Positions 3,572 through 6,869 of a stretch of DNA of 9,751 nt are shown here, one piece after another. Both the position numbers and the translations under genes were made by a program. The stretch is from assembly GCA_945483525.1 (NCBI GenBank), contig CALYRV010000071.1:1-9751 (forward strand), in the 5' to 3' direction. Source of the DNA: an uncultured Verrucomicrobiota bacterium. GTDB taxonomy: Bacteria; Verrucomicrobiota; Kiritimatiellia; RFP12; UBA1067. Within the stretch, counting starts at the first letter, position 1. Each line of letters opens with the position of its first letter. Below the pieces are notes generated by a model, which was not told the DNA's origin, did not search any database, and saw nothing but the letters and a program-made list of their open reading frames with translations.

Positions 3572-4540
3572 TTACAGGCACGGGCGCAGGATCATATTCT
3601 TGTAATCCGCATCGGAATGATCACCCTGGAGATAGATGAAGCCCGGGACGAATTCGTTCGCATCTACCGCACCTCCAGTAATGCCGACGACCGGAGCGTT
3701 GTCAATAATCTTGACCCCGTTGAGGATAACGGTGATGTGACGCTTGTAAAGCGTGACGTTCACGTGCTGCCACTCGCCGGGGGCCTTCTCGGCCTGAACG
3801 GACGGAGCGACGCGCCCGTAATACGCGCCCATGTTGTGGATGAAGTCATCCTTCTTGCCGTAGCTGTCGACGACCTGACACTCGTAACGACCGCGGAGAT
3901 ACACGCCGGAGTTAGAACCTTTCGGAACGCGGACGTCGTACTCGAGGTTGAAGTCGTAGAAGTCATCACGCTTGGTCCGCAGATTCACGCCGCCACCAAC
4001 CCAGCTGCCATCCTCTTTGACGCCGAGCTTGTTAGAAAGGACACCGTCCTTGAAAGACCAGCCGAACTTGCCGTTTGTTTCGAGCTGCTCCCAGCCGGAA
4101 AGTCCGTCCTTGAGCAGGTCGATCGGCTCGCCGAGTTTCGCGTCGTCGGTGCTGGCAGCCGCAATGGGGGGATTCCTCCACCCCTTAATCGAGGTTTCAA
4201 TGGACCCATCCTTCTTGAACATCGTGGCCTTCAGCGTTCCGCAGCAAACGGAGCCTTCGACCTTCTTGTCGCCCCAGGGGTGGACGAAGCTGAACTTGTT
4301 GCCTTCGATCTTGAAGTCTTTCATCGGGATCGGAGAGGCCCAACGCCACAGTACCAGCGCCTGCGGATTGCCGTTCGCATCACGAGAAGCTATCATATGA
4401 CCGGCTTTCATCGCATCGTAACCGAGTTCAAGCCCCCAGTTTCCAATAACTGGATCCTTGGGATCGCCGCGCTTCCAGCAATCATTACATGCGCATCCGG
4501 CAAGAATCGCCGCCGCCAACGGAATCAAAATCTTCTTCAT
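3572..4540 (-). CDS. DUF1080 (3-keto-disaccharide hydrolase-like) lipoprotein
   Basis: This is a 322-aa exported lipoprotein. The N-terminus MKKILIPLAAAILAGC is a lipoprotein signal with lipobox LAGC and lipidated Cys16. Residues about 138-320 are a DUF1080 domain with a concanavalin-like beta-sandwich fold. Visible motifs are DLLKDGLSGWEQL, WSFKDGVLSN, FNLEYDVRVPKGSNSGVYLRG, YECQVVDSYG, PGEWQHVNVTLY, VILNGVKIID and the closing FIYLQGDHSDADYKNMILRP. Some family members hydrolyse 3-keto-glycosides made by Gfo/Idh/MocA dehydrogenases, and such an oxidoreductase starts three genes downstream. Residues about 30-130 form a second small beta-rich region (NWGLELG, WRWASPIP, GTLKATMFKKDG) seen in related lipoproteins. 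The start is firm: GAGGAG lies 10 nt before the ATG. The substrate cannot be told from sequence. Confidence 0.92.
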   Translation of the reverse strand: MKKILIPLAAAILAGCACNDCWKRGDPKDPVIGNWGLELGYDAMKAGHMIASRDANGNPQALVLWRWASPIPMKDFKIEGNKFSFVHPWGDKKVEGSVCCGTLKATMFKKDGSIETSIKGWRNPPIAAASTDDAKLGEPIDLLKDGLSGWEQLETNGKFGWSFKDGVLSNKLGVKEDGSWVGGGVNLRTKRDDFYDFNLEYDVRVPKGSNSGVYLRGRYECQVVDSYGKKDDFIHNMGAYYGRVAPSVQAEKAPGEWQHVNVTLYKRHITVILNGVKIIDNAPVVGITGGAVDANEFVPGFIYLQGDHSDADYKNMILRPCL

Positions 4541-4579
4541 TATTCAATTTCTCCTCATATTGAAATTATATCTTTTGTA

Positions 4580-4595
4580 ATTATATCAAAAATCC
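4580..4595 (-). promoter_or_regulatory. Extended -10 promoter of the DUF1080-uvrB run
   Basis: The minus strand reads GGATTTTTGATATAAT, with the extended -10 TGATATAAT at 4588-4580. The expected start is near 4573, giving a leader of about 32 nt with GAGGAG at 4556-4551. A second GATATAAT lies 15 nt downstream (4572-4565). The 16-nt sequence is identical to that in front of the divergent kinase-like gene at 5426-5441. No consensus -35 is present. Confidence 0.65.
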
Positions 4596-4596
4596 C

Positions 4597-4613
4597 CTCT
4601 CAATGGTAGAGAG
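4597..4613. promoter_or_regulatory. Small inverted repeat at the -35 position
   Basis: CTCTC (4597-4601) and GAGAG (4609-4613) flank 7 nt and sit exactly where a -35 box for the minus promoter would be. It could be an operator. Read as a minus-strand transcript, it is a 5-bp hairpin followed by GGGATTTTT, so it could equally be a weak terminator for any minus-strand RNA from the structured region at 4722-5309. Neither role is proven. Confidence 0.3.
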
Positions 4614-4721
4614 CTTCAGTCTAATATCGACGCGGAACAAGTTTGACAACATTGCCACGCCCATGCGCCCCACCAAATCGAGTTCCCGAAACGATTCATA
4701 AGTGATTATGTATATCGCATA

Positions 4722-4873
4722 GTCACGGTTTGGCGGAAGTCGTCTCGGTCAACGAGCGAACTCCTGATCCTTCGCTCTCGTGATGATCGATCACTAATCA
4801 TGCCGTAATGCCGTTCATACCGTTCTGAGGATCAATCATCACGTGCCCGAGACGACATTCCGCCAACCGCGAC
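4722..4873. repeat. Long inverted repeat forming a three-way junction
   Basis: The outer arms 4722-4748 and 4847-4873 pair over 25 bp, broken only by two single-base bulges and one A/C mismatch. Inside are two further stems: 4754-4760 with 4771-4777 (7 bp, perfect, 10-nt loop), and 4779-4792 with 4830-4843 (13 bp, one C/A mismatch). Together they fold as a three-way junction. Both mismatches become G-U pairs if the minus strand is transcribed, which mildly favours a minus-strand RNA for this part. Alternatively it is a 152-bp miniature mobile element with 25-bp terminal inverted repeats; I see no target duplication at its edges. Confidence 0.75.
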
Positions 4874-4881
4874 CGGCAACA

Positions 4882-5054
4882 ACTGTCCCCGCAACGAAAA
4901 GCAAAACGCTGCCCGTACACGCATGAACGAACGGGACCTGTGGAGCTGGAAGACCGCGAAGTCCAACACCTGGCTCGCCGGACAGTGCATCATGTATCAC
5001 AAGGCCGTCATCGGCTTTGGGACGAGCTTGCGTTCACAAGCGCCGGATAGCGGC
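4882..5054. other. Cluster of small hairpins between two long stems
   Basis: Several local stems link the two large inverted repeats. They are 4882-4888 with 4980-4986 (7 bp, enclosing 4912-4916 with 4931-4935), 5001-5007 with 5012-5018 (7 bp including a G-U, four-base loop TCAT), 5026-5030 with 5037-5041 (5 bp, six-base loop) and 5042-5045 with 5051-5054 (4 bp). Single short stems could be chance; their density next to the long stems is what suggests a continuous structured RNA. An open frame crosses this stretch but looks non-coding. Confidence 0.4.
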
Positions 5055-5060
5055 AGCAGA

Positions 5061-5309
5061 AGAAGACGCGACCACCAACAGGAGCGAAGCCTCGCCGAGG
5101 AAGGATCCGGGGAGTCGCTGAGACTTTTTTACGGGGCCGACGTGCTGGGCGACGCGCATATTCACCTGAACGCGACTCGGGCGGAAGCGAAAGCGGAAAC
5201 GCACGTTCACCTCGGGGATGGCATGTCGGCGGGGTCCCCCGTAAAAAACGTCGAAGCGAGCTCCCCGGCGACGACGAGGCAAGCGAGGAGCAATGCACCG
5301 CAGCGTCTT
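5061..5309. ncRNA. Candidate structured RNA with nested long stems
   Basis: Four nested stems are visible: 5063-5069 with 5303-5309 (7 bp); 5089-5094 with 5275-5280 (6 bp); 5107-5119 with 5255-5268 (13 bp, one bulge); and 5122-5145 with 5221-5252 (24 bp including one G-U, with a single-base bulge and a 7-nt bulge). The core has a GCG-GAAA-CGC hairpin (5193-5202), a GNRA tetraloop on the plus strand. The G-U pair and the GNRA loop favour the plus strand. I do not recognise RNase P, tmRNA, SRP or 6S signatures. With 4722-5054 it may form one RNA of about 600 nt. No clear plus-strand promoter or terminator is seen, which limits confidence. Confidence 0.45.
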
Positions 5310-5360
5310 GCGACGGCCGTTACAGATACAAAAGCTCTCCTTAACCTTTATTTATCGGGC

Positions 5361-5381
5361 TATGGCGTACTTCACGCCGTA
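5361..5381. other. Hairpin upstream of the kinase-like gene promoter
   Basis: Arms 5361-5368 and 5374-5381 pair over 8 bp (one G-U) around the loop ACTTC. It is followed on the plus strand by a run of A, not T, so it is not a normal intrinsic terminator in either direction. It could be the last element of the upstream structured RNA or an operator about 55 nt upstream of the -10 at 5436. Confidence 0.4.
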
Positions 5382-5425
5382 AAAATCGCGAAACTCCAGC
5401 TGGTGAATTGCATGCTATGTATAAA

Positions 5426-5441
5426 GGATTTTTGATATAAT
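5426..5441 (+). promoter_or_regulatory. Extended -10 promoter of the right-hand operon
   Basis: GGATTTTTGATATAAT holds the extended -10 TGATATAAT, with TATAAT at 5436-5441. The expected start is about 5448, giving a leader of about 30 nt with AAGGA (5466-5470) 7 nt before the ATG at 5478. The -35 region (TGCTAT at 17-nt spacing) is poor. The 16-nt stretch is repeated exactly on the opposite strand ahead of the DUF1080 gene, suggesting shared promoter class or co-regulation. Confidence 0.65.
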
Positions 5442-5477
5442 GACATAAAATCCAATTAGTTGAGAAAGGAAAAGACA

Positions 5478-6869
5478 ATGGGATGCAGCTGCGGATGTTC
5501 TTCATGCAATAGGGAATTTATCGCACCGATGGGCGCGCTTTGGCAGATCTACGATGGCATCGCCTCTAAGTCCAACACCGATATCGTATCGGTTGCGTGG
5601 GAAAGAGAAGAGGGCAAGATTTATCGTTATGATCTTCCGATTCCAAAACGCCTTGATCCCGAGGCCGTTAAGTTTGTCAGCCATGTCATCGACCGTATCA
5701 CGAAGTTCGCGTTGTGGGCGGCCGGCGGTTGGAAGCTTTATCTTTCTGGGCCCGACGCGGTCGTCCAGCCGGTGGCGAAGGCTTATACAAGGAAAGGCGC
5801 ACGCAAGTTTGATTATGATTTCTTCACCTCAATTTATGGTCGTCCCATGGAGGTGGTCGTGGTGCCGCTCAAGAAGATGCCCGAGATGACGGAGAAGCTT
5901 GTTCAGGTGAAGACGGTGGCGGACGGAAACCGTATCGGATTTGACCTGGGAGCTTCCGATTTCAAGATCTCCGCGCTCAGGAAAGGAAAGGTTGTCTTTT
6001 CGAAGGAGTTTCCTTGGGATCCCGTCAAGCAGGCGGACCCCGAATACCACTATCAGCATCTCACCGCCGGGCTCAAGGAGGCAGCGAAGGTCCTCGGCCG
6101 TGTGGATGCGATCGGCGGATCGTCTGCGGGCGTTTTCGTCGGCAAGAAGCTCGGTCTTGCATCGCTTCTCCGTACCGTCAAGGCGAAGAACCCCTCCAAG
6201 TTCGAGCAAGGTCAGAATATGTTCTACCGCATTGAGAAGGAATGGGGTGTTCCGTTCGAGGTCTATAACGACGGCGATGTCACCGCGCTTGCGGGCATGA
6301 TCTCAATGAACAAGGAAGGTATTCTCGGTGTCGCGATGGGGTCTTCTGAGGCGGTCGGCTATGTTGATCCGAAGCGGCGCATGACTGGTCGTATCACGGA
6401 GCTTGCCTTCGCGCCGGTTGATTTCAATCCCTGCGCACCATGCGATGAGTGGTCCGGCGATTATGGTGTGGGCGCAATGGCGTTCTCGCAGCAGGCTGTC
6501 AATTGGCTCGCGATTCGAGAGGGCTTCAAGTTCCCGAAGACGATGAAGCTCCCCGAGCGTCTCAAGGTCGTGCAAGCCGCGATGGAGAAGGGCGACGAGA
6601 AGGCGCTTAAGGTCTATATCCAGATTGGGCGTTTTCTCGCGCATGCGATTCCGTGGTATAATGAATTCTTCGACTATTCGAACATGATGATCCTTGGTCG
6701 TGTCACTTCCGGCCTCGGCGGATGCGTGATTCTCGAAACCGCCAAGGCGATGCTCAAGGATGTCTATCCCGAGTGGGGCGAGAAGATTGACATCTTCATG
6801 CCGGACGAGAAGGCGCGCCGCCTCGGTCAGTCTGTCGCCGCCGCGCAGATCCCGGTGATCAGGAAGTAA
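5478..6869 (+). CDS. ROK/ASKHA-fold sugar-kinase-like protein with Cys-rich N-terminus
   Basis: The 463-aa product has a C-terminal actin-like ATPase/sugar kinase fold (from about 150). GFDLGAS (154-160) is the phosphate-1 loop, VYNDGDVTALAG (263-272) matches the ROK segment carrying the catalytic Asp (D265), GVAMGSSEAVGYVD (284-297) is the second phosphate loop, and ILGRVTSGLGG (405-415) the adenosine-binding turn. ROK kinases phosphorylate hexoses or acetylated amino sugars, or act as repressors; no DNA-binding helix-turn-helix is seen here. The ROK zinc motif (CxCGxxGC) after ELGH is replaced by ELAFAPVDFNPCAPC (308-322). The N-terminus is MGCSCGCSSC, and about 150 residues of unrecognised domain precede the kinase fold. 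I chose the ATG at 5478, which has AAGGA 7 nt upstream, over an in-frame TTG at 5460 that would include the ribosome site. It leads a putative operon with ruvC. Confidence 0.8.
   Translation: MGCSCGCSSCNREFIAPMGALWQIYDGIASKSNTDIVSVAWEREEGKIYRYDLPIPKRLDPEAVKFVSHVIDRITKFALWAAGGWKLYLSGPDAVVQPVAKAYTRKGARKFDYDFFTSIYGRPMEVVVVPLKKMPEMTEKLVQVKTVADGNRIGFDLGASDFKISALRKGKVVFSKEFPWDPVKQADPEYHYQHLTAGLKEAAKVLGRVDAIGGSSAGVFVGKKLGLASLLRTVKAKNPSKFEQGQNMFYRIEKEWGVPFEVYNDGDVTALAGMISMNKEGILGVAMGSSEAVGYVDPKRRMTGRITELAFAPVDFNPCAPCDEWSGDYGVGAMAFSQQAVNWLAIREGFKFPKTMKLPERLKVVQAAMEKGDEKALKVYIQIGRFLAHAIPWYNEFFDYSNMMILGRVTSGLGGCVILETAKAMLKDVYPEWGEKIDIFMPDEKARRLGQSVAAAQIPVIRK

What the first reader, a model, noticed from the sequence alone, without database searches (positions are those of the whole stretch)
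4722..5309. Large candidate structured RNA (about 590 nt) in the divergent gap
Between two divergent operons, the sequence holds at least ten inverted repeats, several nested and 13-25 bp long with small bulges, plus a GNRA tetraloop hairpin. No plausible protein is encoded. Such nesting is hard to get by chance and is typical of large ornate bacterial RNAs, yet no known class (RNase P, tmRNA, SRP, 6S) is recognisable to me. Known families such as OLE, GOLLD or ROOL cannot be excluded by eye.
Basis: partly seen in the sequence, partly recalled or inferred. Interest (0 to 1): 0.75.

Follow-up and report, generated by a model that had tools for sequence, protein, structure and literature searches.

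The report
Two mobile hairpin repeats side by side
The suspected giant RNA between two genes of a gut bacterium is really two separate hairpin-forming repeats; relatives of each are scattered through related bacteria, sit at the ends of some jumping genes and behind ordinary genes, and keep their folded shape while their letters change.

Summary
In detail: 4722-5309 folds better than shuffled sequence on both strands and encodes no recognisable protein. The reading as one ~590-nt RNA is not supported. The region joins two different hairpin families, A (core 4734-4863) and B (core 5113-5263). Covariance models find A at 69 places in 26 of 114 genomes of one Kiritimatiellae family and B at 23 places in 11 of 114. 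I saw A and B side by side only in this window, and neither occurs in 80 loci around relatives of the right-hand gene. Each fold is strongly conserved (A: 31 of 35 pairs, B: 28 of 38 pairs with changes on both sides). A occurs as inward-facing inverted pairs, twice around an IS30-like transposase; one B pair encloses a transposase remnant. A copies usually lie sense behind stop codons of unrelated genes (26 Pfam-supported sense cases, 3 antisense). Best reading: a MITE-like composite of two transposon-linked hairpins which, when read from outside, fold in the transcript and probably attenuate, end or stabilise it. That function, and the transposon origin of this particular copy, are inferred. 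Rfam has no match.

The parts
4722..4873 (+). Hairpin A: outer stem, side hairpin, inner stem with a 2x2 internal loop; model core 4734-4863
   Evidence: I1 and I2; R1 113.1 bits on the window (the window is one of the 21 sequences of R1); blastn matches in G007; covariation
4874..5101 (.). Linker between A and B, no full-length relative found
   Evidence: in 114 genomes only one match at E<=0.001 falls here, about 40 nt in G107 (E 9.4e-5, window 4954-4993); one search also lists 38 nt in G007:C6 (E 0.009). No Pfam match
5102..5268 (+). Hairpin B: long stem with side hairpin and conserved unpaired stretches; model core 5113-5263. The strand usually sense behind genes is the minus strand
   Evidence: blastn E 1.3e-19 in G010, 1.2e-17 in G007; R2 147.5 bits on the window (the window is one of the five sequences of R2); covariation
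4580..4592 (-). Promoter-like string TTTTTGATATAAT before the left gene, pointing away from the element
   Evidence: that it is a promoter is inferred from sequence and position
5429..5441 (+). Promoter-like string TTTTTGATATAAT before the right gene, pointing away from the element
   Evidence: inferred as above
3572..4540 (-). Left neighbour, 3-keto-disaccharide hydrolase domain protein
   Evidence: Pfam PF06439
5478..6869 (+). Right neighbour, ROK family protein
   Evidence: Names given by sources of its homologues; no Pfam match

Best explanation
The structure at 4722-5309 is a MITE-like composite of two dispersed palindromic elements, A at the left and B at the right, both facing inward as they do in inverted pairs elsewhere, some of which enclose an IS30-like transposase or its remnant. 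Shown: each hairpin is multicopy, conserved as a structure, mostly at non-orthologous sites, and physically linked in some genomes to IS30-like transposases. Inferred: that this copy itself came with such an element; no terminal repeat of that kind and no transposase remnant was found in the gap. Also inferred is the mode of action: a transcript entering from outside reads A(+) or B(-), the same strands that mostly lie sense behind stop codons of host genes, and folds into a bulky branched hairpin that attenuates or ends read-through or protects the 3' end. In this window both neighbouring promoter-like sites point outward, so the element is probably little transcribed.
For: A: 69 places in 26 of 114 genomes; B: 23 places in 11 of 114. 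Covariation: A 31 of 35 pairs, 95.2% of cells paired; B 28 of 38 pairs, 91.8%. A pairs inward in 6 of 6 pairs fetched; L226 and L227 enclose an IS30-like transposase within TTTGCCA terminal repeats; A beside further IS30-like genes in G095, G017, G006. B: 3 of 3 pairs with the minus strand inward, one enclosing an IS30-like remnant. Among 18 A loci compared only 4 pairs share flanks. Neither hairpin near relatives of the right-hand gene; A and B together only in the window among 40 sources. Sense position behind genes: A 26 of 34 tested sense frames with a Pfam match above cut-off against 3 of 11 convergent; B minus strand 7 of 12 against plus strand 1 of 10.
Against: No IS30-type terminal repeat of the L226 kind in the window and no credible transposase remnant in the gap (best E 0.018 over 18 residues). 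Most IS30-like loci examined carry no A: of 30 only L246, L247, L249 and L259 match R1 at E<=0.001. The A-bearing ends of L246/L247 do not fold clearly better than shuffles (z +0.2 to -2.0, 40 shuffles). Strong covariation with kept internal loops is more than an idle MITE needs. The G.U against A.C test points for B to the strand that is not usually sense. Some A copies have convergent genes (L163, L220, L242).
Confidence: 0.72

Rival explanations
1. A single large structured non-coding RNA of about 590 nt, transcribed from its own promoter.
For: Better than all 20 shuffles on each strand; covariation in both halves; no protein.
Against: The halves are found apart; no full-length relative of the linker; nothing similar in 80 loci around relatives of the right-hand gene; the sigma-70 scan of 4400-5600 found no promoter-like site, though that scan also missed the two promoter-like strings of the neighbours.
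Confidence: 0.06
2. Two independent functional RNA elements (A and B), each acting in cis at the 3' ends of transcripts, that happen to be neighbours here; the transposons merely captured them.
For: Strong covariation; orientation bias behind genes; two orthologous sites that kept A, L244/L310 and L234/L238.
Against: Inward inverted pairs with transposases; in the window A and B lie between divergent promoter-like sites, not behind a gene.
Confidence: 0.15
3. DNA-level elements: the hairpins act as cruciforms or single-stranded folds (for example as transposase or nucleoid-protein sites), and RNA is irrelevant.
For: Inverted arrangement at both ends of the transposon; G.U makes up about 2% of the paired cells of A, and A.C mismatches (19) are not rare beside G.U (36), unlike 14 tRNAs of the same loci, 13 to 0.
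Against: Strong sense bias behind genes, which a DNA-only role does not predict.
Confidence: 0.15
4. The whole gap of about 0.9 kb is one inserted element bounded by the 32-nt inverted repeat 4564-4595/5426-5457.
For: 84% inverted repeat close to both edges of the gap.
Against: Both arms contain the same promoter-like string beside their genes, a simpler reason for the match; no empty site is available because gene order left of ROK is not conserved.
Confidence: 0.1

Closest known systems
MITEs derived from insertion sequences (review PMC10969869, passages read)
   Same: Short, intergenic, non-coding, multicopy; derivatives L229 and L231 share ends with a transposase-bearing relative; the review says MITE transcripts form stable stem-loops and finds a role as terminators conceivable
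   Different: No terminal repeats or target duplication shown for the window copy; the modules are branched hairpins with strong covariation, and A also occurs singly
REP/BIME and other palindromic intergenic repeats (PMC3733652, PMC2817692: listing and abstract starts only)
   Same: Palindromic, extragenic, dispersed
   Different: Those abstracts give 20-40 bp and often more than 100 copies per genome; A is about 130 nt with at most 8 matches per genome
IS110/IS1111 guide RNAs (bridge RNA, seekRNA; PMC11208160, PMC11187229: listing and abstract starts only)
   Same: Structured non-coding part of an insertion sequence
   Different: Another transposase family; here the hairpin is at both ends, inverted, and spreads without the transposase; no guide function was tested
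OLE, GOLLD, ROOL large RNAs (recalled; Rfam scan)
   Same: Long, intergenic, highly structured
   Different: No match at the cut-off, and the unit is not conserved as a whole

Membership tests
Any Rfam 15 family, including OLE / GOLLD / ROOL where held | Score at or above the family's gathering cut-off | tested here: not met
   0 matches in the window; best sub-threshold GOLLD 10.2 of 150 bits
Single large structured RNA | Conserved as one unit in several genomes | tested here: not met
   A and B found apart; B in none of 39 other loci fetched for A
Single large structured RNA | Covariation of the base pairs | tested here: met
   Separately for A and for B; not for the unit
Single large structured RNA | Transcribed | not testable with these tools
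   No RNA-seq
MITE | Multicopy, non-coding, mostly at different sites | tested here: met
   For the modules A and B, not for the A-B composite
MITE | Terminal inverted repeats shared with an autonomous element | tested here: not met
   Not found in the window (one search tested the L226 type only); an end of that type in L230, L231 and L233; a 46-bp inverted repeat in L105
MITE | Target-site duplication | not tested
   No empty site or clear boundary available
IS30-family insertion sequence | IS30 transposase inside the element | tested here: not met
   Window gap: none. L226: NF033563 76 bits against a cut-off of 80
REP / BIME | 20-40 bp palindrome, often above 100 copies per genome | tested here: not met
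   About 130 nt; at most 8 A matches per genome
REP / BIME | REP-associated tyrosine transposase in the genome | not tested
   Not searched
Intrinsic terminator | GC-rich hairpin directly followed by a U-run | tested here: not met
   One search finds no terminator-like site on the A or B hairpins; its three sites are on the minus strand at 4613-4595, 4613-4597 and 5267-5252, the last using one arm of B with TTTTTT inside the stem

The most novel reading that the evidence does not exclude
A and B are RNA devices carried at both ends of IS30-like transposons: inward-facing guards that fold in any transcript entering the element and cut it off or protect its end. Host genomes have repeatedly adopted them as 3'-end elements behind stop codons, keeping the fold by compensatory change while the letters drift.
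Probability: 0.25. Interest if true: 0.72.

Novelty: new variant of a known kind. Interest (0 to 1): 0.48.

Why it matters
A convincing 'ornate RNA' in one genome turned out to be two mobile hairpins side by side, a trap for RNA discovery from single sequences. The two hairpin families have no Rfam match, come from an uncultured gut lineage and covary strongly. If their sense position behind genes reflects function, they link transposon ends to the 3' ends of host mRNAs, which a simple reporter could test.

Tried and rejected
Known RNA classes, tRNA and tmRNA: none. Phage and plasmid relatives of 4600-5450: no match. Conservation of the gap near relatives of the ROK gene: 80 loci fetched; blastn of the gap gave one 30-nt match, E 0.043, to window 4568-4597 in L024, away from its ROK gene; no model match. 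A two-arm pattern of A in viral contigs gave 2 matches (L119, L120), rejected: blastn of the window gap and the L105 element shows nothing beyond 24 bases there; the L119 match lies inside a long coding frame, and L120 was judged coding by eye only. Matches of the window at G010:C10 and C9 were judged coding by eye. Protein remnant in the linker: none convincing. IS30 transposase remnant in the gap: best E 0.018 over 18 residues, rejected. The wobble strand test (G.U against A.C) does not decide between RNA and DNA: A 36 to 19 or 35 to 19 on pairs found on both strands; B 28 to 4 on the plus strand, which is not the strand usually sense, and only 4 to 3 on pairs found on both strands. A codon-usage gene caller of my own called the L226 transposase antisense, so only Pfam-supported genes are counted. 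R2 was built from five sequences including the window, and A6 and A7 are fitted to the models' structures, which favours those structures. E-values of R1 and R2 are rough; the family and phylum searches used stricter filters that lose weak matches.

How the orientation counts were made: 57 A copies without the window. A sense frame ending shortly before A was looked for within 160 nt and 80 codons in 23 loci picked, and within 200 nt and 120 codons in the rest; convergent frames within 200 nt and 120 codons. Sense frames were found in 34 and all 34 were sent to Pfam; 26 match above a curated cut-off, L242 only below it. Convergent frames were found in 14; 11 were sent and 3 match (L163, L220, L242). 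The 3 not sent lie in transposase-bearing elements: in L174 and for the right-hand A of L226 the transposase itself converges on A, and the one at the left-hand A of L226 runs antisense to the transposase. Two pairs of the 26 are orthologous sites (L234/L238, L244/L310). For B, 21 copies with the window: 10 sense frames, all sent, 1 match; 12 convergent frames, all sent, 7 match; three further convergent frames of the same copies had no match. No correction for relatedness was made.

Full report
What was checked. The window comes from a bacterium related to the Kiritimatiellae: relatives of the protein right of the gap bear that name where a source names them. No whole genome is held for the window. 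The gap 4541-5479 lies between two divergent genes, a 3-keto-disaccharide hydrolase domain protein and a ROK family protein. The strong inverted repeats exist. The stretch 4690-5350 folds better than all 20 shuffles on each strand, z -5.07 (+) and -7.29 (-). No Rfam family reaches its cut-off, there is no tRNA or tmRNA, and the three frames of the gap that were tested have no Pfam match.

It is two things, not one. A DNA search of 25 related genomes and of 114 genomes of the same family returned its good matches in two separate blocks: window 4740-4871 (hairpin A, three places in G007) and 5102-5262 (hairpin B, in G010, G007 and G001). The two further matches at E 0.001 or better are short: about 40 nt of the linker in G107 (E 9.4e-5) and 36 nt in G010 that I judged coding by eye. 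Model R1 for A (21 sequences) finds 69 places in 26 of 114 genomes. R2 for B (five sequences) finds 23 places in 11 of 114. Neither is in the 80 loci around relatives of the ROK gene. Over the window and 39 other loci fetched for A, R2 finds B only in the window. Of 387 genomes drawn across the phylum, 5 have A, and all 5 are among the 26; those searches use filters that lose weak matches.

The folds are conserved. In 52 distinct A copies (58 matches) 95.2% of 1758 cells pair; 31 of 35 pairs have changes on both sides, 364 such cells against a mean of 111 in shuffles; sliding the partners lowers the covariation score from 0.520 to at most 0.116. In 23 distinct B copies (25 matches) 91.8% pair, 28 of 38 pairs change on both sides, score 0.530 against at most 0.103 when slid. 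Both alignments were fitted to their models. A sequence-only alignment of 21 A copies also gave 24 of 35 pairs with double changes. By eye in that alignment, the inner stem keeps a 2x2 internal loop while the pairs around it are exchanged. The GNRA-type hairpin of the window is not kept in the other B copies aligned.

They are linked to transposons. A hits in L226-L231 come as inverted pairs, and in 6 of 6 the A strands face inward. In L226 and L227 the pair encloses an open frame that NCBIfam scores as IS30 transposase, 76 bits against a cut-off of 80 for L226, between terminal repeats beginning TTTGCCA that lie 2119 bp apart in L226. L228-L231 hold pairs with a short spacer; the same end motif was found at one end in L230 and L231 and not in L228 or L229 with the pattern used, although L229 matches L226 over its right end. 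A also lies beside an intact IS30-like gene in G095:C54 and beside partial ones in G017:C151 and G006:C8. For B, three pairs were seen (L283, L303, L304), all with the minus strand inward; the second member in L304 is weak, 29.2 bits. L283 encloses an IS30-like remnant. Against a fixed link: of 30 loci fetched for IS30-like genes only L246, L247, L249 and L259 match R1 at E 0.001 or better, and the A-bearing ends of L246 and L247 do not fold clearly better than shuffles.

Copies sit behind genes. With the hairpins masked, 18 A loci gave only four pairs with shared flanks; two of these, L244/L310 and L234/L238, were aligned and are orthologous on the upstream side. So copies are mostly at different sites. 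Of 57 A copies, 34 have a sense frame that ends shortly before A; all 34 were tested and 26 have a Pfam match above a curated cut-off, at 19 to 184 nt from the stop codon to the model start, with unrelated functions. Of 14 with a convergent frame on the other side, 11 were tested and 3 match (L163, L220, L242); the other three lie in transposase-bearing elements. For B the minus strand is the sense one: 7 of 12 convergent frames match, against 1 of 10 on the plus side. So for both families the strand that faces inward in the inverted pairs is the strand that is usually sense behind genes. In the window A(+) is left and B(+) right, which again puts both inward.

How it may work. A transcript that enters such an element from either side would form the hairpin first. 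It could end or weaken read-through into the transposase; behind a host gene it would lie near the mRNA 3' end. This is inference. No terminator-like site with a U-run was found on A or B in the sense direction, so factor-dependent termination, processing or end protection are likelier than intrinsic termination. The wobble test did not settle RNA against DNA: A has 36 G.U to 19 A.C cells, fourteen tRNAs of the loci held have 13 to 0, and B has 28 to 4 on its plus strand but 4 to 3 on pairs found on both strands. In this window both neighbouring promoter-like strings point outward, so I expect little transcription of the element.

Literature. PMC10969869 (passages): MITE transcripts form stable stem-loops and a terminator role is conceivable. 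PMC2864571 (passages): a catalogue of candidate structured RNAs. PMC3733652, PMC2817692, PMC11208160, PMC11187229: listings and abstract starts only. Six searches listed no title on such hairpins in Kiritimatiellae; the library holds open-licence papers only, and each search listed at most 20.

Verdict. The fold is real and each half is conserved as a fold. One large RNA is not supported. The region is best read as a composite of two mobile, transposon-linked hairpins whose sense position behind genes suggests an action in RNA.

Noticed in passing
window 4564-4595 and 5426-5457: A 32-nt inverted repeat, 84% identical, holds the string TTTTTGATATAAT on both sides of the gap. That exact string occurs 0 times in the 825,004 bases of L001-L080, TTTTTGNTATAAT 8 times; similar strings follow many A copies (seen by eye).
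   Followed up: partly
L105:1899-2040 and loci L177-L196: A third repeated module (C) of the L105 element matches places in many of the 29 genomes, sometimes next to B (G089:C51, G097:C30, G077:C258). Not modelled.
   Followed up: partly
L105:1503-2110: An element of about 608 nt in G007 with a 46-bp inverted repeat (95.7%) at its ends, holding A and C; related copies elsewhere in the same genome. The similarity of the ends may extend further out (by eye).
   Followed up: partly
L164-L173, L244, L310: Short GCGGCAGTTT-like repeats flank several A copies in G006, G002 and G095 (by eye).
   Followed up: no
L248-L257, upstream of the transposase: Several IS30-like elements without A have a fold-back left end, with an inverted copy of the terminal repeat about 100 nt inside and fold z-scores down to -6.7.
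   Followed up: no
L111, L112, L113: A sequence of about 1.7-2 kb, 79-85% identical in three genomes, met through a weak match; identity unknown.
   Followed up: no
L236:928-1494: The sense frame before A holds 4Fe-4S motifs and only the first third of a nitroreductase domain, so the gene may be cut short here.
   Followed up: no
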